DNA of 47,234 bases from contig JAUYKW010000023.1 of assembly GCA_030698395.1 (NCBI GenBank), forward strand, positions 1 to 47,234. Reading direction: 5' to 3'. A model generated the notes under the pieces. That model ran no database searches, was not told the DNA's origin, and was given only the letters and a program-made list of their open reading frames with translations. This document shows, in pieces, positions 4,001-17,474 of the stretch (positions within the stretch are counted from its first letter, which is position 1; the number at the start of each line of letters is the position of its first letter). Source of the stretch: a bacterium (GTDB taxonomy: Bacteria; Patescibacteriota; Patescibacteriia; UBA9570). The translations under genes were made by a program, and so were the position numbers.

Positions 4001-5989
4001 CCTACCTGTACTTGATAAGTATAAGATCTTATCTGGATGACTGGCCAGTACCACACAACCCAAATCGACATCTTTTGCTGACGCTAAATGCCCTTTGAGT
4101 TTTCGAAAATCCAGTTGGGTACCAGCATAGCGGGCATAATCCTGTAAGCGATAAGCAATATGGGTGAGTGCTTCAGCTCGAATATAAAATTGATCACACC
4201 ACTGGCGAAATCGTTGTTGGGCAGCGCGACCTTCTGGAGACTTATCGCGACGCATGGCTTCAACTACACCATTGTCCAGAGCTTCAGCAAACACATTTAA
4301 GGCCTTAAGCCAATCTGATCCACCACGGTCAAAGCGATTTTGAATACCTTGCACTTTTTTACGAGCATTTAAACGTTTGTCTTTTTCACCAAAACCAGAA
4401 GCTACTTCTTCATCACGCCGGCTGGGACCCATTAACACATCTCCCTCACGTTCAAAGGCGGCTAACACTAAGGCCGCTTCCAAACACTTACGTTCCTTGG
4501 CTTCAATCAACATTCGGGCAATTCTAGGTTCAAATGGCATTTCACCCATTTGTCTGCCGCGATCGGTTAAACTAGCGTCTTCCGCTAAGGCACCAAGGGC
4601 TTTTAATTCCTCCTCACCACCAGTTAAGGCAGCAGCATCTGGCGGTTCAATAAAAGGGAAAGTTTGTGGCTCAATACCTAAACGCTTCAAGCGTAAAATC
4701 ACATGCGATAAATTACTACGCCTAATTTCTGATTCTGGATGTTCGGCTAATTGAGAAAATTGCTCAGTTGTAACAATGCGTACACACTCACCAGGTTGCA
4801 CGCGACCAGCACGCCCTGCGCGTTGTTGAGCTTGATCTTTGGAAATGAAACCTGTACCCAATTCTTGGATACCAGTTTGTGGGTTATAGCGCACTGACCG
4901 TTCACGACAGGTATCTACCACTAGCGTCACACCAGGCACTGTCACGGAAGTTTCAGCGATATTCGTTGCCACAATAACCCGCCGTCGCACACCGCTCGGT
5001 TTATCGCCAGACAAGGCATAGTCACGATCCTTAGGCGTTAAGCCACCATAGAGTGAGATAACTTCTACCCCAAGAATTGTGCCAATTTGCTTAATACAAT
5101 CCCTAATTTCTCTGGCACCGGGCATAAAGACTAAAATATCACCACCCTTAGTGCTGCAAGCTTTTTTCACTTCTTCAGCAGCTAGCCGAATGTATTCATA
5201 TTTTCCCTGAGTAGCTTCATGAGCCTTTTCAGCATAACGCGCATCAACTGGGTGAGCTCGACCTTCGATTCTGACATATTGGTCATCAGGGATATCAAAA
5301 AATTCCTGGACTCCTTCGCGGTTCATGGTGGCACTAGTCAGCACTGTTGGTGGCAATTCCCCCCCCTGTTGCATTAATTTCATCAAGCCCAAGGCCAGGT
5401 GATAATCAATGCTACCTTCATGCAGTTCATCTACGATGATGGCACCCACTTCACTAGCGCGTAAATCGCCAGACATTAAGTGGCGTAAAAAAATACCAGG
5501 TGTGATGACACTTATTTGGGAGTTTGATCTGACGGCTTTCATTTCAGACGTAGAAAAACCAATCGTGCTGCCTAATTCTTCATCAGCTATTGCTGCCATG
5601 GCTCGAGCTACGCCACTGCAGGCGTCACGTCTTGGTTGCATCACTACCACGCGCAATTTTCGATCAAGTTTGCGTAACAGTCTACGAACAATTAACGGAG
5701 TGTACAATGATTTACCAGATCCAGTTTCACCTTGCAATAACGTAATGCCATTACCAGCTGTGATGGCATGTTCAACAACGCTGGACAACTTTTCTCGATC
5801 ACGACTAACTGGTAAATCTTGAGCCTCAATTCTCGCCCGCAAACTGCGTTGTCGATCCTGTGTAGCATACTCTTCCACTGTTCTGTCGTCCACAACACGC
5901 TCATCGCTATCATCTGGAGTACCAACAGTAGCAACGTAATCTAAAGATTTATCGGGTAGTCCTCTTGGTTCAGGAGGTTGGGTTGGCAT
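1052..5989 (-). CDS. DEAH-family (HrpA/HrpB-like) ATP-dependent RNA helicase with a very long C-terminal extension
   Basis: Walker A GETGSGKS, Walker B DELH, SAT motif (VLTSATMN), QQRAGRAGR motif VI, NIAETSVTVPGV motif V. Confidence 0.85.
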   Translation of the reverse strand: MPTQPPEPRGLPDKSLDYVATVGTPDDSDERVVDDRTVEEYATQDRQRSLRARIEAQDLPVSRDREKLSSVVEHAITAGNGITLLQGETGSGKSLYTPLIVRRLLRKLDRKLRVVVMQPRRDACSGVARAMAAIADEELGSTIGFSTSEMKAVRSNSQISVITPGIFLRHLMSGDLRASEVGAIIVDELHEGSIDYHLALGLMKLMQQGGELPPTVLTSATMNREGVQEFFDIPDDQYVRIEGRAHPVDARYAEKAHEATQGKYEYIRLAAEEVKKACSTKGGDILVFMPGAREIRDCIKQIGTILGVEVISLYGGLTPKDRDYALSGDKPSGVRRRVIVATNIAETSVTVPGVTLVVDTCRERSVRYNPQTGIQELGTGFISKDQAQQRAGRAGRVQPGECVRIVTTEQFSQLAEHPESEIRRSNLSHVILRLKRLGIEPQTFPFIEPPDAAALTGGEEELKALGALAEDASLTDRGRQMGEMPFEPRIARMLIEAKERKCLEAALVLAAFEREGDVLMGPSRRDEEVASGFGEKDKRLNARKKVQGIQNRFDRGGSDWLKALNVFAEALDNGVVEAMRRDKSPEGRAAQQRFRQWCDQFYIRAEALTHIAYRLQDYARYAGTQLDFRKLKGHLASAKDVDLGCVVLASHPDKILYLSSTGRGLPSYYPLSGSRGNEINMSPGSEGFDSQPKLCIAADISQGRGSGRRGAEIVRNYANGVHPISFEVLREALPHMIEERRNSLRYDATSDQVVVEIVLYPKGNSSIELGKEDRVVEGAEATETFARALAYAQVDLPCVAHNKTLLEQLQALQQRSRGQVQPPTDMAAWYVEHLAGVYRKSEATYINDALQLQREDFYPKVLQEETDRLYPETVSIGGEQLPVRYDFRAAQERWGKAERFTATVMLTEEQLNLFEQTDIPQLGTAEQPVPLMLEARIGWQAQTDINIENLKDALDTYRIRQAWDQWEKPAAKPVATELLKPLPSCAELGYEPTAYTTNRNGEPVLAYPAITTLQEYDYSISAYRYNFSVQYYPNNAEAEQAQTSATAKKTEVDAAEQRRLDRETILAPAQELYAQIEPRVAAVVKGYEQFGFSYSEAQDLNTRLQEANMSIQGRDRYGRTTEVDPRKALELLQAIEQTLADREKSKLGQAELYKQATAVRDRAQQLVTEKLAGNRFRYYGLAEERGRALQTQWDAAVRLLSRFTPGRTTDTFNPAEAMRVMPEVEQTLLPLELNTSPLQVAFLEMLDQAGSSARLLEVRGGVAVRASGMDGQNDTLQLNSEEKYKREPRRITMRLGVGNMYMRGRELSHWSGTGRTLYDHYQLPDGLYAVGNKGEVYSVQRRGEQLIAQQKVEALQVSYDQGVAPEGVANWAEVANEPIQLESVDSPFAAALKKVTVKEPPKAVESVKPVGPAADASTLGQLVAAFGGDKGKKKSGTSEPVVEVPAQVVEVPTRPVAEVKAVEVEVMTPELLASFTDQVDVLHSLIGQLKTLGDKPKLQPKDRPTDRDKALLELYDKLIPGLNDTTRNVRGELAASNPRPERIRGLVADLRRRVDRAWDKTGARTVTGYRPDWTLKYLGAWESIPAVADTEETAMLAVEMGLDKTILIAEARAELTKLIPRLQKEDAEVVLDLPTIIADVANRIS

Positions 5990-5994
5990 ACCTG

Positions 5995-6549
5995 TTACTG
6001 TAAGCGATTATCGTTATAAAATAATTGTGTGATAGGTAGTTGGATAAACCAATTCACTGTCAACAATAGTAGAGTAACTGGAACTTCTCCAGTGAGATGT
6101 ACTGTCTGCTTATTTTGCGCTAACGCATACAACTGTCTTAGAAAATTTAGAGCTGGCTCATCAGGTTGGTCACGTTTCGAATCTTCCCACCATTCAATTA
6201 AATTAATGGTCACATCAGTGGTTGTATCAGACTGTTGTTGCTGTGCAAAACCATCGAGGTCTGCTTCAGAAAATTCCGCTACGCACTTTACATCACTTGG
6301 ACGTAAAGTTATGGTTTCGTCAACTTGGGTTGTTAGGAGATAAGCAGTAGGTGAACCAGATGGGCGATAGGTAATTTCTGTGGCGACAGTGCGCAAACGT
6401 AAAAATAACGGTAACAGTAATTCTGTATCTGCCTGTCCACGCAATTCATACGCTACATTTTTGGCTTGCGTTAAAAACGTTTTAGCTGAAGGTTTGGTCA
6501 ACTTATCTAAGCGTACTACAACGTAATCAAGTAACTGTTCAGATTGCAT
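5995..6549 (-). CDS. Hypothetical protein with a possible divergent Csx3-like C-terminal module
   Basis: ORF in tight operon; C-terminus TVHLTGEVPVTLLLLTVNWFIQLPITQLFYND resembles the V-x-L-[ST]-G-x-x-P-x-x-L Csx3 core. Confidence 0.6.
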   Translation of the reverse strand: MQSEQLLDYVVVRLDKLTKPSAKTFLTQAKNVAYELRGQADTELLLPLFLRLRTVATEITYRPSGSPTAYLLTTQVDETITLRPSDVKCVAEFSEADLDGFAQQQQSDTTTDVTINLIEWWEDSKRDQPDEPALNFLRQLYALAQNKQTVHLTGEVPVTLLLLTVNWFIQLPITQLFYNDNRLQ

Positions 6550-6554
6550 TGAGT

Positions 6555-7784
6555 TTAGGCTTTAGCTCTCCAAGATTTTACTAACACTGCCTCTTCATCT
6601 GGCTTTTGATAATGCAGTTCTGCAATCAAACCATGTGCCGCATGGGCCACTTTACCAGCGATGGCTAATTCCACTGCATTGGTAATCCCGGTGATAGTTA
6701 ATACACTAGCTTTATTAACAGCTTCTTTGGCCAGAGCTAACACTACGGCATCAACATTCATTGGGTCAGCCGCTAAGGCTTCCTGCACGTTTAAAGTGAG
6801 TGGCACACGACTGTCTTTAAATTGTAGATCAGGATTTTGACCTTTATTCTTAGGAACTAAATCATGCGTTCTGGGATCGCGATGTTGGAAGACTTCAATG
6901 CCTGCAACAGTTAGTGATTTGGCTACCGAGTGGACGCTATCCATTAATCGCAACCCAGCTTGAGGTGATAGAGCTTCCAATTCAGCGGCATTGATTTTTA
7001 CTTCGTTATTCGGTAATTCTACACCAAGTGCGGTTTGAGCACCGCGCCAATTTTGTACTTGTTCTATGCTCGCAGTCGGATTACTTGCCTCAACAGTTTG
7101 CGATGGAGTGCTTTCAACCCTACCCATCTGGTTACTAGCTTGATCAGTACTGGCATCATAGGTTACAACCTCTTTTCCCGGAGCAAAAGAAATGACTTTA
7201 GTAAAACCTTCTTTGACTGCAGCAAACGCCGCACCTTCCGCCAACCAAATTGGAAATCCAGTTAACCGCACTGTCGTATCACCCTGGCTCCGCAGCTCGC
7301 GCAGTTGAGCAATGACTTGTTGCATCACGGCTTCACTGGCAGCTGCATTGACCATTTCCGGACCCTCGGGATCACCGCGAAAAGTCAAACGTAAATCTAA
7401 TACTTGACTAGGAGCCGTTGGATCAATTTTTGAATCTCCCTGATCAGCCATTAGTGAGCGTTTTAATTCTACAGTAGGTTGTGCCATCGCTTCAGACCAC
7501 AATACTACTCTGCCTTCACGTCCAGGGTTATTAAAGGCTAATTCATTTACTGACGAACCTGGCTTAGCAGCTTCGGCAGCCACTGCCATGTAGATGGTCA
7601 TCAACGTACCACCAGTTAGGTCCAGTTTTTGTTTATCTAACAGTCCGCGCTCTTGAGCAGTTCGTACATAAGCTGCTAACTGCCCTTCATCGGCCTTACC
7701 ACCCTCATATAACTTACTCGCATCAATCAAAGTTGTATCTGTTGGGTGTTCTTGAGGTATGGCTAGCGGATGTACTGGTTCCAT
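6555..7784 (-). CDS. Protein with two Csx3-like modules
   Basis: TTVRLTGFPIWLAEGAAFAAVKEGFTKVISFAPGKEVVTYD and SVLTITGITNAVELAIAGKVAHAAHGLIAELHYQKPDEEAVLVKSW resemble the Csx3 core (vvlSGrgPIWL...H...vavYdPrlgavVV). Confidence 0.6.
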   Translation of the reverse strand: MEPVHPLAIPQEHPTDTTLIDASKLYEGGKADEGQLAAYVRTAQERGLLDKQKLDLTGGTLMTIYMAVAAEAAKPGSSVNELAFNNPGREGRVVLWSEAMAQPTVELKRSLMADQGDSKIDPTAPSQVLDLRLTFRGDPEGPEMVNAAASEAVMQQVIAQLRELRSQGDTTVRLTGFPIWLAEGAAFAAVKEGFTKVISFAPGKEVVTYDASTDQASNQMGRVESTPSQTVEASNPTASIEQVQNWRGAQTALGVELPNNEVKINAAELEALSPQAGLRLMDSVHSVAKSLTVAGIEVFQHRDPRTHDLVPKNKGQNPDLQFKDSRVPLTLNVQEALAADPMNVDAVVLALAKEAVNKASVLTITGITNAVELAIAGKVAHAAHGLIAELHYQKPDEEAVLVKSWRAKA

Positions 7785-7848: not shown

Positions 7849-8957
7849 TCATGGCATATCTTCAACATATTTCTCTTGGCGTTTTTTACGATTGTTTTCA
7901 AATACTGGTCGGTCGTCATCATGGGTCTCATTCAACCAGTTCTCTTCCATGTCAAATTGTTCACGTTCAGCAAAACGAAATACAAAACCCGGCCCTTCAA
8001 CTAAATCAGCTAGATACAATGCCGCTTGTTCTGGTGTTTGTATAGTTGCTGGAAGCTGGCCATAGGACTTCAACTTTTCTGTATAGGCTATTGCCACTGC
8101 CCGATTGCCTTCAAGAGCTTTATCTAGTTGTACTAATAACCAAAATGGCCGAATAAAAGCTTCAGAAAACTGCCCTTCGTTGATCGTAAGATGTCCTTCA
8201 CCATAACGGTGAATGGTTTCCACCCAAAAACGCAATACCTTAGCCAACATTTTGGGGCCAAGTTTTTCATCATCTCCATCCCAGCCTAATTCTTTCGGTG
8301 TTGGCCTAATAATACGCCGCACGGTATCCAAAATACATTGCTTACTGGCAAAAATAAATTGATCATCCGCATAGACTTCATTGATCGTCAGGTCTCGTGA
8401 TTGAAAATAGTCATCATCGACTTCCTCAACCACTTCATGTTTGGTTAAGGCTAAATCATCTTGCATAAATTGTTCTGCAATATCCTGATCGTGAGTATTG
8501 GGTATTCCAGACAAACGCGCTACATCCACATCCCTAGGTTGCGCCATGGGTTGCAAGTCTAAGGCCTGCATTAACAATGCACGCGCTGCCCCCCCCCCTT
8601 ATACACATACCCTTCCGGTAAACGCTGCTGATGAAAATGTTCTTTTACCGCCAGACGAAAAATATCTGGTTTGACCTCGCTGATTTCTAGCGTACTTATA
8701 TCTACACCATATTCTTCTATAACTGACTGTAAGTCTGGATGTCTATCCCACACCACAGCATCAATCTGTTCAGCTTTGACTAATACTTCATTAACAGTTG
8801 CTCCAGTATTTTCCGGTCGCGGTAAGATCTCAGTTAATTTTAATAACTGCTGTTTCCAATCTGGTAAACTTGGACGTTTTTCTACGTGTCTTTTTAAGAC
8901 TGAAACTGGTTCCATTGCTAGCAAAGTATTAGCCAATAAATGATTTAGCTTGTTCAA
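7849..8957 (-). pseudogene. Class II nucleotidyltransferase (poly(A) polymerase/CCA-adding-like) split into two ORFs (8571..8957 and 7849..8577) by a G10 tract; disrupted, phase-variable or a sequencing indel
   Basis: 8571..8957 runs ...GYVYKGGG and then shifts; removing 2 G or adding 1 G gives a continuous frame ...GYVYKGG(G)AARALLMQALDLQPMAQPRDVDVARL...SRDLTINEVYADDQF, matching hG[GS]..R, [DE]h[DE]h and an RDFTINAL-like motif. Confidence 0.7.
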
Positions 8958-9870
8958 GCACTGCTGCCATCAAAACTGGAGTTGGATTACCAGTATTATC
9001 TACACCCATGCAATTTGAACCAAATCCAAAAGCTAACCGTGGTTCGGCTACTAACCCTTTATAATGTTCAATCAGTGCTGGAACACCTGCCGGATTAATA
9101 TTCTGCACATAAATTTTTGCTCCACTGTTAACACTAATCACTACTGGCTTCGTATCCAACCCGGCTTTCATGGCCGCTTCAGATATAAAAGTGCGCGCAT
9201 CATAAGGCTGGGTTGATTCCACCACCATAAAACCATCCTGCTCGCGGCGCTGTGCCCAATCTTGTTCAGCTGCGATGACTCGTTCAGGATACTGCGGGTC
9301 AATTTCGGCAGCTAACTGTTGGCGAAATTCTATCACGCGGGCAATGTCGGCTTGATCATACTGGTGATTACGTAAACCTTGCACAAAACCATGGTCCATA
9401 ATGCCAATCCCACGAACGGTTTTTGGATCATAGCCCCAGGCCATTAATTCTGTATCGGTGATATGCGTTCTAGCCATGAACTGTTCTAAAGAACTAGGTA
9501 AAGCTCTGCCGTTAGAAGCTTGCGTTCTATCTAAACTACCATAACGATGATGGTCAATCACTTCTAACTCTAAACCTGAAACGCGCAATGCCTCTTCAAT
9601 CTCAACATTTGGAATTTCAATAATCCACACCTCTTGTTTTTGGGTAGCACTCAGCTTATTTGATAAATCAGGTTCTTTGTCTAGCGTAGCGCCATGTTTC
9701 TGATCACTAGTAATTACTGTCATACCAAGTCTTTCAGCTAAGTGGGTAATAGTTTGTGATTCAGCATCATTACGTGGACACACTAAAACAACCCGTTCTA
9801 AAATTCTTTCACGGAATTCACGTGGATCATCTGGTGTTTTAGGTAAACCGATTTTAGCTCCTGGCTCCAT
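8929..9870 (-). CDS. DHH-like phosphoesterase family protein
   Basis: EVIDHHRYGSLDR motif, SSLEQ segment, GIGIMDHGFVQGL, C-terminal FGFGSN; overlaps the following gene by 29 nt (operon). Confidence 0.55.
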   Translation of the reverse strand: MEPGAKIGLPKTPDDPREFRERILERVVLVCPRNDAESQTITHLAERLGMTVITSDQKHGATLDKEPDLSNKLSATQKQEVWIIEIPNVEIEEALRVSGLELEVIDHHRYGSLDRTQASNGRALPSSLEQFMARTHITDTELMAWGYDPKTVRGIGIMDHGFVQGLRNHQYDQADIARVIEFRQQLAAEIDPQYPERVIAAEQDWAQRREQDGFMVVESTQPYDARTFISEAAMKAGLDTKPVVISVNSGAKIYVQNINPAGVPALIEHYKGLVAEPRLAFGFGSNCMGVDNTGNPTPVLMAAVLEQAKSFIG

Positions 9871-10049: not shown

Positions 10050-10712
10050 CTACTCCTCCGAGATGGTGGGCTTGAAGGCCCCGTCCACCCGCAGGCGGTG
10101 GCGAGCCTCGAGCCGGATGGCCTGGCGATCGACCGGCTTCATCCAGACGAATCCGCCGCCATCAACCCGGCGAGACCAGGAGATGCGAACGAACTCGCCT
10201 ACGATGCCGTGCAGCACCGCGTCCATCACCATCACTCCGGCCGGGAGGTTGGGTGGGACGAGCACGACGTTCGGGTCGGCCGCCATCAGCCGCGAACGAA
10301 TGGCGTCGGGGAGCGTCATCAGCGCATCGATCACCGAATCCCGGAGGGCGTCGGTGGTGTCGATGTTCAGGTGGATCGCGTGATCCACCATGATCGCTCC
10401 CGTTCCCCAGTCGGCTTCGAAAGCACGAAGGGGGTGGCCGCTCATGTTCACGATGGTGAGCGGTCCCGCGGTGGCAGAGCCCCGAATGGCCACGGTGGCC
10501 TTGCGGGTCTGAGCGACGGCGACGAGGATCGCCACCATGGAAATCACACCCGTGAACGGCTCCAAAAAATTCCAGAGACCGAGCGACCAGACGACGAGAG
10601 CGGCGACCACGGCGCTCGGCACCCAGATACGGATGTCGGCGAAGATGTGGGCCAGCTTGTCACCGGCGGTGGAGAGGGCGGGGAGGACGGTGTTGTCGAG
10701 GAACGTGCGCAT
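10050..10712 (-). CDS. Membrane-anchored protein with a Csx15-like soluble domain
   Basis: RBS aaaaaaggagaagaaatcATG at 10712 (ORF track start at 10874 is too long); hydrophobic helices VPSAVVAALVVWSLGLW / FTGVISMVAILVAVA; soluble part LTIVNMSGHPL...VVLVPPNLPAGVMVMDAVLHGIVGEFVRISW...DRQAIRLEARHRLR. Confidence 0.65.
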   Translation of the reverse strand: MRTFLDNTVLPALSTAGDKLAHIFADIRIWVPSAVVAALVVWSLGLWNFLEPFTGVISMVAILVAVAQTRKATVAIRGSATAGPLTIVNMSGHPLRAFEADWGTGAIMVDHAIHLNIDTTDALRDSVIDALMTLPDAIRSRLMAADPNVVLVPPNLPAGVMVMDAVLHGIVGEFVRISWSRRVDGGGFVWMKPVDRQAIRLEARHRLRVDGAFKPTISEE

Positions 10713-10820
10713 GATTTCTTCTCCTTTTTTGAGAAAGACTGAGTGGCGCCCAGAGTGGAGGGGTTTTGGTTCCACTTCTATAATCACCTTTGGATTTTTA
10801 AAGATGAGTATGGAAGCGGT

Positions 10821-10865
10821 GGTCGACGGCGAGATTCCTTGTTGAAGGGAAACCCGCCGCCGACC
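10821..10865. other. GC-rich inverted repeat between the Csx3-like and TM-Csx15-like genes
   Basis: ggtcgacggcg (10821-10831) vs cgccgccgacc (10855-10865), 10 of 11 paired. Confidence 0.6.
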
Positions 10866-10880
10866 GATCCGCAAGAACCG

Positions 10881-11456
10881 CTACTTGTGGTCGATCACCA
10901 CGACCCGGGCTGCGTTGGGAGCGCTGTACACGACCTGGCCTCCGCGCGAGTGCAGCGCGGCCGCGAGGGCAAGGTACAGCCAGATCGGACCGGGACCCGA
11001 GAGCACCACCTCGAACTCGGGCAGCGAACACCCGGGGCGGAACGCGGGCAGGAGCGCCAGCGCCTTCGCTTGGTACTCCACGACGGAGCCCAGTTCGAAG
11101 TTGATGCGCTGGCCGGGCGCGGGGGTGGGGACGAGGGTGGTGATGTCGAGGACGATCTGTCCCTCGACGATGGCGGAGCCGTCACCGCTCGCGACGCCGA
11201 CCGCGACGGGCGAGTAGTCCACACCCGGGGCCTGGTAGTGAATGCCGCCGTCCGGGATGGTACCGTGCGCGGCGTGCCACACGGCGAGGTAGAGCCAAGC
11301 GGGACCGGGGCCGGTGAGGGTGATGGACGAATGGCCGGTGATCCGGGTCAGGAAGGTGTTGATGTACGTGGGGAGATCTTCCACCACGAAGTTCACCTTG
11401 CCCTCCGGGATGGAGGCGTCGGTGGTCAGGAGAGAACGCAGATCGAGAGTGAGCAT
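10881..11456 (-). CDS. Tandem Csx3-like protein (two Csx3 modules)
   Basis: ITLTGPGPAWLYLAVWHAAHG...IHYQAPGVDYSPVAVGV and EVVLSGPGPIWLYLALAAALHSRGGQVVYSAPNAARVVVIDH; strong RBS aaggaggacatATG. Confidence 0.75.
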   Translation of the reverse strand: MLTLDLRSLLTTDASIPEGKVNFVVEDLPTYINTFLTRITGHSSITLTGPGPAWLYLAVWHAAHGTIPDGGIHYQAPGVDYSPVAVGVASGDGSAIVEGQIVLDITTLVPTPAPGQRINFELGSVVEYQAKALALLPAFRPGCSLPEFEVVLSGPGPIWLYLALAAALHSRGGQVVYSAPNAARVVVIDHK

Positions 11457-11867: not shown

Positions 11868-12290
11868 TCAGACTTCCTTTATTTCACTATTGACTAGTGC
11901 CTGAATCAACAATTGGTTATCTTTCCCAAGCTTTTTACATATTAGTTTAAGTGTCTCCTCATTCAAACGACCAGTGGTATGATCAATAGCAGCGATAATC
12001 TGATCTCGGTGTGTGAGTAATGGTTCAGTCTCTAACAGAGTAGCTAAGCGTCCGACATTATAGTGAGTAAACTGGCAGTCACGTTGAATCTGTTCAACTA
12101 ATTCATCAATCGTAGCATCGATCCACACTTCGGCTTTACGCAGCTGCTGTAACTGTCGCTCAATTTTCCGGCTATTTAATTCGGCTACGGGTTGGCCGGC
12201 CGGCTTGAACTGCTCCCCCAACCCCCTGCTTAATTGCAAACCATTCTCTTGCTGACCTTTTTGCTTTTGCTTGTACATTTTCTGAAACAA
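11868..12290 (-). CDS. Hypothetical 140-aa protein; possibly part of a rearranged Res region
   Basis: ORF directly downstream of and overlapping the truncated Res-like ORF in another frame. Confidence 0.4.
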   Translation of the reverse strand: MFQKMYKQKQKGQQENGLQLSRGLGEQFKPAGQPVAELNSRKIERQLQQLRKAEVWIDATIDELVEQIQRDCQFTHYNVGRLATLLETEPLLTHRDQIIAAIDHTTGRLNEETLKLICKKLGKDNQLLIQALVNSEIKEV

Positions 12291-12453
12291 GCTCTCCCCT
12301 TAAATCTACTTCATTTTTAAGTTCCAACTCACCCACAAGTTTTGATAAAATCTCAAGACTCTCTGTTTGTGGAGGTCGAAGACTAAGCCTGTTGTTAATA
12401 GTTTGAGCATTTTTATTCATAGTCTTCATGGTTAAGATCTTGGTCATCAGCAA
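12172..12453 (-). pseudogene. Truncated N-terminal fragment of a type III-like restriction (Res) helicase-nuclease
   Basis: NNRLSLRPPQTESLEILSKLVGEL resembles N-termini of Res subunits; no helicase motifs follow in any frame; overlaps the mod stop. Confidence 0.45.
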
Positions 12454-14050
12454 CTTCTTCAGTTGATTGAATAATATTCAAATCATAATTGTCTTGACCA
12501 AATTCACATTTACCTAGAATCATTAAAGGAATTTTCTTGATCGTGATATTAGGATGTCGGCTATCACATTCGGGAGCATAAGATTTAGCACAAATAAGCA
12601 AGCTTTCCTCATCATTCATTTCTTCATGAATCTTATCGAGTTGCTCCACAGTGACAAAGGCAGTTGTGACAAATATATGATCTGTTTCAGTTGATTGACC
12701 CTGTTTCCAATACAATTCTTCATGAGGAGCAAATCTAAAACCTTCATGCTTACACATGGCTGCACTAAGCATATTGGCATTGTACTTTTCATCAATGACC
12801 CAATTGCCGTATTTGTCTTTTTGAAGCAGACTTGGGGCAAGATTATAAAACTTGAAGCCACCTCCACCTTTCCAGCTCAATGTCTCGGAAAGTAGTAATC
12901 CATCAGTATTATCTACTACCTTCCTGAGTCTTGGTAAGCAGTGCGTATTAGCATGTTCACCATACTCAATCCCAATATGCCTTCTGTTCATTTTATGGGC
13001 AACGGCTGAAGTTGTTCCTGATCCAAGAAAACTATCAAGGATCCAATCTCCCGGTTTTGAAGCTAGATCTAAAATTCTTTTTATAAGTCGTTCTGGTTTT
13101 GGGGTGTCGAATACGTCATCTCTAAATAATTCCTTTATTTCTCTTTTTGACTCTTGATTATCACCAACTTCTATTCGATACCAGATAGTTTTTGAAACCA
13201 TGCCTTCTTGTACTTCAGAAAGAAATCTTTTAATTCGTGGCAAACCATTCCCATCTTTTCCAAACCATATTCTATTATCTTTAATGAGTCCTTCAAATTT
13301 TTCTTTAGTAAATCCCCAGCATCTGCTATTAGGAGGATTGACAATCCTACCAGAGGGCGTAGTGATTGGAAAATCAGTATTGGCCGAGTAAGTCTTGACT
13401 GAAGGATTATCGGACATCCACGCTCCACGGGAATCATTATCAGGATTTTTATACGAAGAATTATTCTCATTTGTCCTTGGTAATAAATATGGTCGCCAAA
13501 CTGACTTATTATTTGCATACACTAAAATGTGATCATGGCTGTCGGAAAGCCATTTCGCATCATTTTGAGGAGAATATTTTTTCTCCCAAATTACATTTGC
13601 TACAAAATTCGAACGCCCAAAAACTTCATCACATAGCACTTTCAGATAATGGCTTTCATCGTCATCTATGGAAATCCAAATACTACCTGCGGTGGGGTGC
13701 AAAAGATTTTTTAAGATATCAAGTCGTGGCCTCATTAAGCTAAGCCATGTTGAGTGCTCAAGATTGTCATCATAATGCTCAAAAGCACTCCCCGTGTTGT
13801 AGGGAGGATCGATATAAATACATTTTACTTTACCAGCATAATCCTGCTCCAAAGCTTTCAAAGCTAAGAGGTTATCTCCGTGAATCAGCATGTTCTCTGA
13901 GTTCGGATCACCATATGATTTTTCAGGATCTTCAATCAGAATTCTTGGCTCCAATTTCACTTCATCATCTTTACCAATCCATGTTAGCTCAAGGCGTTGC
14001 TTCCTCTTTTTTGGAGTCTTACCGTTTTGTTGTTGATTATTATTATTCAT
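12413..14050 (-). CDS. Type III-like site-specific DNA adenine-N6 methyltransferase (Mod)
   Basis: NMLIHGDNLLALKAL, IYIDPPYNTG (DPPY), LDSFLGSGTTSAVAHKMNRRHIGIE (FxGxG). Confidence 0.9.
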   Translation of the reverse strand: MNNNNQQQNGKTPKKRKQRLELTWIGKDDEVKLEPRILIEDPEKSYGDPNSENMLIHGDNLLALKALEQDYAGKVKCIYIDPPYNTGSAFEHYDDNLEHSTWLSLMRPRLDILKNLLHPTAGSIWISIDDDESHYLKVLCDEVFGRSNFVANVIWEKKYSPQNDAKWLSDSHDHILVYANNKSVWRPYLLPRTNENNSSYKNPDNDSRGAWMSDNPSVKTYSANTDFPITTPSGRIVNPPNSRCWGFTKEKFEGLIKDNRIWFGKDGNGLPRIKRFLSEVQEGMVSKTIWYRIEVGDNQESKREIKELFRDDVFDTPKPERLIKRILDLASKPGDWILDSFLGSGTTSAVAHKMNRRHIGIEYGEHANTHCLPRLRKVVDNTDGLLLSETLSWKGGGGFKFYNLAPSLLQKDKYGNWVIDEKYNANMLSAAMCKHEGFRFAPHEELYWKQGQSTETDHIFVTTAFVTVEQLDKIHEEMNDEESLLICAKSYAPECDSRHPNITIKKIPLMILGKCEFGQDNYDLNIIQSTEEVADDQDLNHEDYE

Positions 14051-14052
14051 AT

Positions 14053-14523
14053 TTATGACCAGTTAAAAGTTTTTAATCTATTTCGAGGAATTGTATATTC
14101 TAAGATTTTCCCTCTACACTTAACATGTAATCGAGTATTATTATTCCAAGAAACAATTACACTTGTTGATTTTTTTTCAAATAAGAGGCGTGTGTTATCT
14201 ATATCTTCCCATTCAAGTGTACAAACTTCGTTATCAGCGCAGACCAAACATATCAATAAATTTTTTTCAGTTTCAATTTCTCTCAATTTAGAGATATCTG
14301 ACTCGGAAAATGTAAATGAAGAATAATGCACTTCCTTTTTTCCAATACGTACATTTGATGTGGACTTAACAAAGACCTTGTGTGTGGATTGGTTATCCGT
14401 AATCTCATAAGCACTCCATTCAAAATCATCACTTTTTTCTAGCAATTTTATATTTATTCTCGGACTTCTAATTATCTGAGATAATACAACGCCGTGATAT
14501 AATTCAAATTTAGAAATAGTCAT
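14053..14523 (-). CDS. Conserved-looking hypothetical protein in the R-M cassette
   Basis: ORF between mod and SNF2 helicase, same strand, tight spacing. Confidence 0.7.
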   Translation of the reverse strand: MTISKFELYHGVVLSQIIRSPRINIKLLEKSDDFEWSAYEITDNQSTHKVFVKSTSNVRIGKKEVHYSSFTFSESDISKLREIETEKNLLICLVCADNEVCTLEWEDIDNTRLLFEKKSTSVIVSWNNNTRLHVKCRGKILEYTIPRNRLKTFNWS

Positions 14524-14534
14524 TGTATATTTAA

Positions 14535-17474
14535 TTAAATCACTTTCCAGCGAATAGTAAATAATGGAGTAAGTGTGGAGTCTTGTTTTAACTGAGCCTC
14601 CACGCGATCGATTAGATTTTCTTTTCTTTCTTCCATTTCATCTTGAGATACAAATAGCTTTTTTCTCATTTCATTTCGTTTCTTTTCCATGTCTTTAATT
14701 TCTTTTTGCACCTTCAATTTCTCATCGAGATTCAAAATATTCTTGGAATTAGTCTTAGCTGCCTTAATATCAATATCCAGCTTCTTTAAATCCAACTCCA
14801 AGGCAATCTTCATGTCATCCGCCCACTTGTCCAGTTTTTCTACCTCAGCATCAAAGAATTCGCTATTTCTTCCTGCAATTTGTCCTGAAATTATAGTTAC
14901 TGTTTGAGCTTCAAATTCATTAATCTTATTTTCTTCTACTGAAGTTAGGGAGTCGCAAGCCTGCTCCTTTCCATAGAGGGCTAGGATTTTTTTTGCCACT
15001 TCGGATTCTAGTTTCTCACCATTATTATCAAACGCTATAGCAATAATATGATCTTCTTTTTCAAATGCCTGAACTGTATAATTGGAAACTCGTAGCAATC
15101 CGCTTTGTCCAACAAAATGTTCTAAAACTGAAATAATTGCCTGATGATTGCTATAGTCAAAAACTATCTCTTTTACAGGCAGGTCACTATTTTTTACTTC
15201 ATTCAAAATTCTTTGCGCTAATGGATGGCCTGGGCGGTAAACATGAGAATCTTCAATATTATTTCCAATTTTATATGGACCCGGTGGGATAGATTCACCC
15301 TGAAATGGGTTTTTCTCCAAAGAAAATGAATATTCATGTTCAGCAAATTTTGCACTGTCACCCAAATAAAATTTAGTAGTCTCCCATAACCATTTTTGAT
15401 AAGTATCCAGATAGCGCTGGCTTTCATGAAGATTTAATTTCAGCTTCTCATGCACTTCGGCATCAAAATTTTCAAGAAGTTTTTGTTTGGCATCACCCAT
15501 ATTTTCCTGAATACTAACATCCATTTCTTCTTGCAAAGAGTCAAATGCACTGTTTATTTCATCTTCTGATCTACAGGATTGATAAATCGAAGCAATGCGC
15601 TTCTCAAAATCCACACCTGATTCAATACTTCCAAGAACTTCATCGCTGGCACCAAATACACCTTTAAATAAATTGAACTTCTGATCTAAAAGTTCGTATA
15701 CTCGCTGATCTGCGGCGTTTTTTCTGTTGACGAAATTAATAACCACAACATCATGTTTCTGCCCATAACGATGACAACGACCGATTCTTTGCTCAATTCG
15801 TTGCGGATTCCAGGGTAAATCATAGTTTATTACCAAAGAACAAAACTGCAGATTTATTCCTTCCGCACCTGCCTCTGTGGCAATCATTATTTCCGCTTCA
15901 TTCTTAAAATAATCTACAATGGCCGCGCGCATATCAGATGTTTTTGATCCGGTAATTTTATCTGTATCTTTGTGTTTTTTCATCCATGCTAAATATATCT
16001 CTTTTGACTTAGGATCATTGTTAGAGCCATTGAAAAATACAACTTTATCTTTATAGCCATTATCAGAAAGTAGCTCTAATAAATAATTCTGAGTAATTCT
16101 AGATTCTGTAAAAATGATGGCTTTCTTTTTAGCGCCTAATTTTTCCGTCATCTGAAAACCTTTCTGTAGACCAATAAGCAAGGCATCCCCCTTTGAGTTT
16201 TTAAAGATCTTCTTTGCAAGATCTCTATATTTTTCCAAATCTATTTTCTCCGCCTTCATTGCTTGAATATCTTCTTTGGTATAAATTTTTTCTTCCTCAT
16301 TTTCCTCATCATCAATATCCTCATCATCAATCCACTCATCTGATAATTCATCAAAGGAGTCAAAATTTTCTTCGATACCAGGAATGCCTAATTCACCTTG
16401 AGCTTGCTGCTTTTTAGCTTTCTCAATCAATTTTTCCAGTTTATAGGCGAGTCCTGTAAGTGTGCTAGCAATAGCAAAAGATGATGAAGCTAGCAGTTTA
16501 CGAAGAATAAGTGACATTAAGTGTCTTTGGCTGGCTGGTAAAGCATAGAGCTTTGGTCTTTGTAGATAATCCGTCATCTCATTATAAAGCTCCACCTCTT
16601 CTTCTGATGGGACATAGTCCTCGGTAAGTGGTATGCGCTTAGTGTATTTGATATATTCTAAAACCTGTTTTCGAAGTGTTCTATTGCAGACAGTTTTTAA
16701 TCGTTTTCTCAGATCAATAAACATTTCTTGCTTTGGCTCTATCAGACCAAGTTCATTTTCGTAAATATCCTGCACTTGGGATACCCGTGAGTATTGTGAT
16801 TTGAAACTTTTTAGGTCACCAAAAACATGATCATCAATAATGCTAACAAGCCCATATAATTCGAGCAATGAATTTTGCAAAGGAGTGGCTGTAAGTAGAA
16901 TTTTAGGGACGTTCTCAAGTGAGTCCTTTATGTCTTTAGCAATTTTATTACTAGGCTTATATACATTTCTCAATCTGTGAGCTTCATCAATAATAGCTAA
17001 ATCCCACGCAGTTTGTTTTACATAGGGAGCTTTATTGCGAGCAAAATGATATGAACAAATTATAATGGTATCGCCTTGATCAAACGGATTGAGATTTCCT
17101 TCTTTTAGACATTGGTTAAACGATTTTGCTTCTAGAATTGTGGATGGAATAAAAAACTTTTCTTGAAGCTCAGTACTCCATTGTTTACGAAGGTTAGACG
17201 GCACAATCAAAAGCATTCTTCTTTTACGCTCAGCCCATTTCTGAGAAATAACCAAACCAGCTTCAATTGTTTTCCCTAAACCTACTTCATCTGCCAAAAT
17301 TGCCCCTTTGGAAAGTGGTGAGCGAAAAGCAAATAAAGCCGCTTCAATCTGATGAGGATTCAAATCAACCTGAGCATTAGATAAAGTGGAGGTAAATTTC
17401 TCCAAACTGTCAGAGGCACTCCGTTTTGTTAACTCGTAAGCATAATATTTTGCGTGGTAATCGGTTATGTTCAT
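14535..17474 (-). CDS. SNF2-family DEAD/DEAH helicase (DISARM DrmD/R-M-associated type)
   Basis: ADEVGLGKTIEAGLV, IIDEAHRLRN, LLTATPLQNS, EGINLQFCSLVINYDLPWNPQRIEQRIGRCHRYGQ. Confidence 0.9.
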   Translation of the reverse strand: MNITDYHAKYYAYELTKRSASDSLEKFTSTLSNAQVDLNPHQIEAALFAFRSPLSKGAILADEVGLGKTIEAGLVISQKWAERKRRMLLIVPSNLRKQWSTELQEKFFIPSTILEAKSFNQCLKEGNLNPFDQGDTIIICSYHFARNKAPYVKQTAWDLAIIDEAHRLRNVYKPSNKIAKDIKDSLENVPKILLTATPLQNSLLELYGLVSIIDDHVFGDLKSFKSQYSRVSQVQDIYENELGLIEPKQEMFIDLRKRLKTVCNRTLRKQVLEYIKYTKRIPLTEDYVPSEEEVELYNEMTDYLQRPKLYALPASQRHLMSLILRKLLASSSFAIASTLTGLAYKLEKLIEKAKKQQAQGELGIPGIEENFDSFDELSDEWIDDEDIDDEENEEEKIYTKEDIQAMKAEKIDLEKYRDLAKKIFKNSKGDALLIGLQKGFQMTEKLGAKKKAIIFTESRITQNYLLELLSDNGYKDKVVFFNGSNNDPKSKEIYLAWMKKHKDTDKITGSKTSDMRAAIVDYFKNEAEIMIATEAGAEGINLQFCSLVINYDLPWNPQRIEQRIGRCHRYGQKHDVVVINFVNRKNAADQRVYELLDQKFNLFKGVFGASDEVLGSIESGVDFEKRIASIYQSCRSEDEINSAFDSLQEEMDVSIQENMGDAKQKLLENFDAEVHEKLKLNLHESQRYLDTYQKWLWETTKFYLGDSAKFAEHEYSFSLEKNPFQGESIPPGPYKIGNNIEDSHVYRPGHPLAQRILNEVKNSDLPVKEIVFDYSNHQAIISVLEHFVGQSGLLRVSNYTVQAFEKEDHIIAIAFDNNGEKLESEVAKKILALYGKEQACDSLTSVEENKINEFEAQTVTIISGQIAGRNSEFFDAEVEKLDKWADDMKIALELDLKKLDIDIKAAKTNSKNILNLDEKLKVQKEIKDMEKKRNEMRKKLFVSQDEMEERKENLIDRVEAQLKQDSTLTPLFTIRWKVI

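What the first reader, a model, noticed from the sequence alone, without database searches (positions are those of the whole stretch)
8571..8605. G10 homopolymer splits a nucleotidyltransferase exactly at its catalytic GG..R loop
Seen: C10 on + (8589-8598) is G10 on the coding strand. As written the upstream ORF ends YKGGGQRVHC*, and the downstream ORF has a stop just before the tract. With 8 G the frame reads GYVYKGGAARALLMQALDL (canonical hGGxxR spacing), with 11 G it reads KGGGAAR; both open a continuous ~370-aa protein with DVDV and RDLTINEV motifs. Either a sequencing/assembly indel, an on/off phase-variable switch, or a transcriptional-slippage site controlling a potentially toxic polymerase.
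Basis: seen in the sequence. Interest (0 to 1): 0.78.

Follow-up and report, generated by a model that had tools for sequence, protein, structure and literature searches.

The report
Poly-G frameshift in a nucleotidyltransferase gene
In a tiny-genome environmental bacterium, a run of ten Gs breaks an enzyme gene exactly at its active-site codons; all 24 distinct relatives are unbroken, so this looks like ordinary slippage of an unstable repeat (in the cells or in the sequencing) rather than a proven genetic switch.

Summary
C10 at 8589-8598 is the longest G/C run in the window and the only one of 9 or more in the 1.32-Mb assembly. It puts the two halves of one gene (ATG at 8915, stop at 7849) out of frame at the glycine loop of a CCA-adding/poly(A)-polymerase-like nucleotidyltransferase. 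All 24 distinct relatives that span the motif are uninterrupted, none has an inserted residue there, and their G run at these codons is at most 6. This supports the 8-G frame as ancestral; the 11-G reading has no precedent. The assembly is not generally homopolymer-damaged: 25 other long runs with coding sequence on both sides stay in frame, and this is the only switch. No downstream structure, tract conservation or A/T character supports programmed recoding. The evidence fits replication slippage at a hypermutable G tract, caught out of frame and probably mixed in the population. A tract-length error in the metagenome assembly is the main rival; reads would decide and were not available. A selected on/off switch is possible but unsupported: the tract is private to this genome. 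Neighbours include Csx15-like, Csx3-like and DHH-like genes, a neighbourhood not shared by relatives.

The parts
8589..8598 (-). G10 homopolymer (C10 on +) at the codons of the catalytic Lys-Gly-Gly-Ala loop; breaks the reading frame
   Evidence: only G/C run >=9 in the assembly; only frame switch among long runs in a 235-kb sample
8571..8915 (-). N-terminal part of the nucleotidyltransferase as written (ATG at 8915; an upstream TTG at 8957 is possible), ending YKGGGQRVHC*
7849..8577 (-). C-terminal part in the other frame (listed ORF begins at a TTG; the frame is open from the tract itself)
   Evidence: 35-44% identical to most relatives, 27-33% to the most distant
7849..8915 (-). whole gene: CCA-adding/poly(A)-polymerase-like nucleotidyltransferase, about 354 aa when in frame
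   Evidence: relatives; fold of a relative
8524..8532 (-). DVD (DxD metal-binding motif) of PRDVDV
   Evidence: R, D and D invariant in alignments A1 and A2
8374..8397 (-). RDLTINEV, the R-D-x-T-x-N motif as in class II CCA-adding enzymes (motif identity from general knowledge)
   Evidence: Y, R and N of the Y...RD.T.N block invariant in A2

Best explanation
One gene encodes a CCA-adding/poly(A)-polymerase-like nucleotidyltransferase of about 354 aa. Its conserved Lys-Gly-Gly-Ala loop is written AAG GGG GGG GCA in the ancestral frame, an 8-G run. Shown: the present tract is 10 G and disrupts the frame, every motif-spanning relative is in frame with the spacing that 8 G gives, and the rest of the gene is undamaged. 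Inferred: replication slippage lengthened the run, so the sequenced allele is out of frame and makes only the inactive N-terminal third. Inferred from the known behaviour of G runs of 8 or more in other bacteria: the length is unstable, so in-frame and out-of-frame cells probably coexist and revert. Whether selection uses this as a switch is not shown, and the privacy of the tract argues against an old, maintained switch.
For: 24 distinct relatives spanning the motif are single ORFs with identical loop spacing. No other stop or frameshift in the gene; 14 of 16 invariant residues kept, so the break is recent. The assembly keeps 25 other long runs with clear coding flanks in frame; this is the only frame switch. 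From an 8-G state a +2 change is needed, which is less typical of a single sequencing miscall (inference). G tracts of 8 or more switch genes in Campylobacter (PMC6321876) and G11-G12 tracts switch Bifidobacterium pilus genes (PMC9187656).
Against: No reads and no second genome of the species were available, so tract variation is not shown. A frameshift seen in one family member only is more often an error or a simple mutation (PMC3711429). Long G tracts are also where Illumina and PCR fail (PMC9187656).
Confidence: 0.5

Rival explanations
1. Tract-length error: the cells carry an in-frame length, and sequencing, PCR or consensus building of the metagenome assembly gave 10.
For: Longest G/C run of the assembly. 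Only one family member is broken. In Bifidobacterium the reference tract length (G11, about 37%) differed from the main population length (G12, about 60%), and Illumina reads failed on G-tract templates (PMC9187656). A true 11-G run read one short would also give 10.
Against: 25 other long runs in 235 kb are in frame. An error from 8 would have to add two bases; an original of 11 would put an extra Gly in a loop where no relative has one.
Confidence: 0.35
2. A selected phase-variable switch: the tract is kept because turning the enzyme on and off pays.
For: Length, in-frame/out-of-frame arithmetic and intact remainder fit translational phase variation; 10 G is a common length in Campylobacter switches (PMC6321876). 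GGG codons are rare here, so the G8 spelling is unusual (0.001-0.005 under codon choice; post hoc).
Against: No relative has more than 6 G at the site. The genome has no other G/C run of 9 or more, whereas organisms with contingency loci have many. No polymorphism shown.
Confidence: 0.1
3. Programmed transcriptional slippage or ribosomal frameshifting restores the frame in some products.
For: A 10-nt homopolymer is long enough in principle; one extra G in the mRNA or a -1 shift restores the frame.
Against: Not conserved in any relative. The region folds no better than shuffled sequence (z = 0.36). The bacterial slippage work read here concerns A/T runs, where the weak hybrid is what slips (PMC6260861). 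Both routes give KGGGAAR with an unprecedented extra glycine.
Confidence: 0.05

Closest known systems
Poly-G translational phase variation (Campylobacter contingency loci; Bifidobacterium breve pilus genes bbr_0113/bbr_1889)
   Same: A G run inside a coding sequence splits one gene into two ORFs, and only some lengths join them.
   Different: There the tracts are polymorphic, recur in many genes or strains and mostly serve surface structures; here there is one tract in one genome, in a cytoplasmic-type enzyme, with no variation shown.
Class II CCA-adding enzyme / bacterial poly(A) polymerase (PF01743)
   Same: GG..R, DxD and RDxTxN motifs in the same order; predicted fold of a relative finds CCA-adding enzymes first.
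   Different: No Pfam hit above cut-off in the window protein or any of 14 relatives; the genome has a separate canonical PF01743 enzyme; partners and substrate unknown.
Programmed transcriptional slippage (e.g. dnaX, IS elements; from general knowledge and PMC1088944 abstract)
   Same: A long homopolymer lies at an ORF junction.
   Different: Those studied are A/T runs; this is a G run private to one genome.

Membership tests
Poly-G phase-variable gene | G/C run of 7-8 or more inside an ORF whose length sets the frame | tested here: met
   cut-offs from PMC6321876
Poly-G phase-variable gene | tract length varies within the population | not testable with these tools
   needs reads or other genomes of the species; the order holds 10 searched genomes and only this one has the gene
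Poly-G phase-variable gene | tract kept in orthologues, or several such tracts in the genome | tested here: not met
   relatives have at most 6 G; no other run of 9 or more in G000
Programmed transcriptional slippage / ribosomal frameshift | conserved shift site | tested here: not met
   24 distinct relatives in frame without it
Programmed transcriptional slippage / ribosomal frameshift | stimulatory structure downstream (frameshifting) | tested here: not met
   z = 0.36, 130 of 200 shuffles fold as well; pseudoknots not examined
Programmed transcriptional slippage / ribosomal frameshift | mRNA length heterogeneity or fused product | not testable with these tools
   needs cDNA or proteomics
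CCA-adding / poly(A) polymerase class II superfamily | GG..R loop, DxD, RDxTxN motifs | tested here: met
   alignments A1 and A2; in the window only when read through the tract
CCA-adding / poly(A) polymerase class II superfamily | match to PF01743 | tested here: not met
   none for the window protein; one of 14 relatives at E 0.13
CCA-adding / poly(A) polymerase class II superfamily | fold | tested here: inconclusive
   relative L048: Foldseek probability 1.00, E 6e-5 to CCA-adding enzymes, but TM only 0.33-0.39
CCA-adding / poly(A) polymerase class II superfamily | nucleotide addition to tRNA or RNA 3' ends | not testable with these tools
   needs an assay

The most novel reading that the evidence does not exclude
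A contingency switch written into the catalytic-loop codons of a CCA/poly(A)-polymerase-like nucleotidyltransferase in a Patescibacteria-type genome, turning on and off an enzyme that sits among Csx15-like, Csx3-like and DHH-like genes, perhaps a nucleotide-signalling defence module without Cas10.
Probability: 0.08. Interest if true: 0.7.

Novelty: new member of a known kind. Interest (0 to 1): 0.3.

Why it matters
If the tract varies in nature, it would be a candidate for poly-G phase variation in a reduced-genome Patescibacteria-type lineage (the one literature search here on that combination, listed no Patescibacteria paper), and for a switch sitting in active-site codons. If it is an assembly error, it is a reminder that conserved Gly-Gly loops can create error-prone G runs and split annotated genes. 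Either way, it points to a nucleotidyltransferase family that no Pfam model matches.

Tried and rejected
Two genuinely separate genes: rejected, since all 24 motif-spanning relatives are single ORFs across the break. General homopolymer damage of the assembly: rejected by the run survey. Recoding structure: none found. A conserved operon giving the function: neighbours of 14 relatives share nothing with the window's neighbours, and only scattered pairs among themselves. Type III CRISPR context: no Cas10 palm domain (PF22335) found in G000; other Cas genes were not searched. Viral origin: no match of the tract flank or of the family in IMG/VR. The first genome-contig scan, with the C-terminal half alone, found nothing. 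The window protein itself was not folded, because a changed copy is not accepted; an intact relative was folded instead.

Full report
Observation. The window has C10 at 8589-8598, i.e. G10 on the coding strand. The upstream ORF ends ...GYVYKGGGQRVHC* and the downstream frame has TAA directly before the tract. Testing tract lengths 7-12 in a script, only 8 and 11 open one long frame. A run of this length is not expected by chance in this DNA (about 0.001-0.01 per window by Markov orders 1-3), and no other G/C run of 9 or more exists in the 1.32-Mb assembly.

What the gene is. No Pfam family matches either half or the joined protein, but 15 other genomes of the same class (of 381) encode relatives, and a motif-based scan of named genomes adds members labelled Magasanikbacteria, Uhrbacteria, Harrisonbacteria, Bdellovibrionales, Phycisphaera and others. 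All are uninterrupted. The scan used the motif itself as its pattern, so only the 14 relatives that span it test the spacing without bias; all 14 agree. Invariant or near-invariant columns include GG..R, RDxD, Y(F)..RD.T.N, a later D, and K and R in a following helix. A model of the relative L048 (pLDDT 84) finds CCA-adding enzymes first in the PDB (probability 1.00, E about 1e-4, but TM only 0.33-0.39). So it is a divergent CCA/poly(A)-polymerase-like nucleotidyltransferase; what it adds nucleotides to is unknown. It is not the cell's only such enzyme: a canonical PF01743 protein is on contig C31.

Which length is ancestral. Every relative has the loop spacing that the 8-G reading gives; none has the extra residue of an 11-G reading. 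Their G run at these codons is 2-6; runs of 6 occur in several distant relatives because AAG GGG GGx is one way to write Lys-Gly-Gly. In this genome GGG is rare (6.8% of Gly codons; 13.6% in the neighbouring genes), so writing the loop as G8 was unlikely (0.001-0.005), but this is a post hoc figure because the site was chosen for its run. The rest of the gene has no other stop or frameshift and keeps 14 of 16 invariant residues, so any inactivation is recent.

Error or real. In 235 kb of the same genome, every long homopolymer with clear coding sequence on both sides (25 runs: A/T 8-9, G/C 7-8) stays in frame; the only switch is this tract. The assembly is therefore not generally damaged, but this is also its longest G/C run, where both cells and sequencing chemistry slip most. 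The Bifidobacterium work shows both things at once: real on/off slippage at G11-G12 tracts, a reference record whose length differs from the main population length, and Illumina trouble on G-tract templates (PMC9187656). The GeneTack survey treats frameshifts seen in a single family member as likely mutation or error (PMC3711429). I put genuine DNA-level slippage somewhat above error and keep a selected switch well below both; a selected switch is a special case of genuine slippage.

Programmed recoding. The site is not conserved, the tract is G and not A/T, and the region folds no better than shuffled sequence (z = 0.36). Both a +1 slip in the mRNA and a -1 ribosomal shift would give KGGGAAR, unseen in relatives.

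Surroundings. On the same strand lie a Csx3-like protein (10881-11456: NCBIfam cas_csx3 E 1.3e-8, 35 bits, below its cut-off of 55.4; Pfam Cas_csx3 36.7 bits, above its cut-off of 21), a Csx15-like protein (10050-10874, NCBIfam 39.5 bits, above its cut-off of 35), a protein with a VIDHH motif as in DHH phosphoesterases (by eye; no family match), a 409-aa orphan found in no other of the 381 class genomes, and a 1645-aa DEAH helicase with an in-frame G8. Next to them are an MTase_III-type methylase and a DrmD-like helicase. This looks like a defence island (inference), but no Cas10 palm domain is found in the genome and relatives of the nucleotidyltransferase do not share the neighbourhood. Relatives of the DHH-like protein occur in four of the other genomes that have the nucleotidyltransferase (G289, G295, G350, G354), but on other contigs.

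Is poly-G frameshifting usual in these bacteria? In 12 related genomes G/C runs of 8 or more are few. Of those inspected, most lie outside long ORFs, two G8 runs are in frame in long ORFs, and one gene in G011 (contig C19, about 27.9-28.8 kb) carries a G9 and a G8 and changes frame at about the G8, while its distant relatives are intact and have no such G run. That is a second candidate for the same read-level test, not proof of a shared mechanism.

Verdict. A real and correctly read feature with an ordinary best explanation: an unstable G run caught, or misread, out of frame. The decisive data are reads across the tract.

Noticed in passing
10050-11456 (-): Csx15-like and double Csx3-like genes in a G+C-rich (58%) segment of an otherwise 35-46% G+C contig, in a genome where no Cas10 palm domain was found.
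   Followed up: partly
5995-7784 (-): The 184-aa and 409-aa proteins contain stretches such as LTGFPIWL and LTGEVPVTLLLL that resemble the Csx3 motif by eye; no library matched them, and the 409-aa protein has no relative in 381 class genomes.
   Followed up: partly
8929-9870 (-): Protein with VIDHH as in DHH phosphoesterases but no family match; relatives in 30 other genomes of the class, four of which also have the nucleotidyltransferase, on other contigs.
   Followed up: partly
5359-5366: Second G8 tract, in frame inside the 1645-aa DEAH helicase gene, so two of the four G/C>=8 runs of the genome lie within 3.3 kb of each other.
   Followed up: partly
11868-17474 (-): Type III-like DNA methylase and DrmD-like SNF2 helicase; after the methylase, two overlapping short ORFs (12172-12453 and 11868-12290), the first looking by eye like the start of a type III restriction subunit, perhaps a remnant.
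   Followed up: partly
L072 (G011:C19:26900-29900), about 1050-1900: A gene with G9 and G8 runs that appears to change frame at the G8, in another genome of the class; its distant relatives are intact without such runs.
   Followed up: partly
L050 and L051: A contig labelled Schekmanbacteria carries a nucleotidyltransferase gene that matches like that of a Uhrbacteria contig (same length, identity and E-value, same motif DNA), which suggests mis-binning.
   Followed up: no
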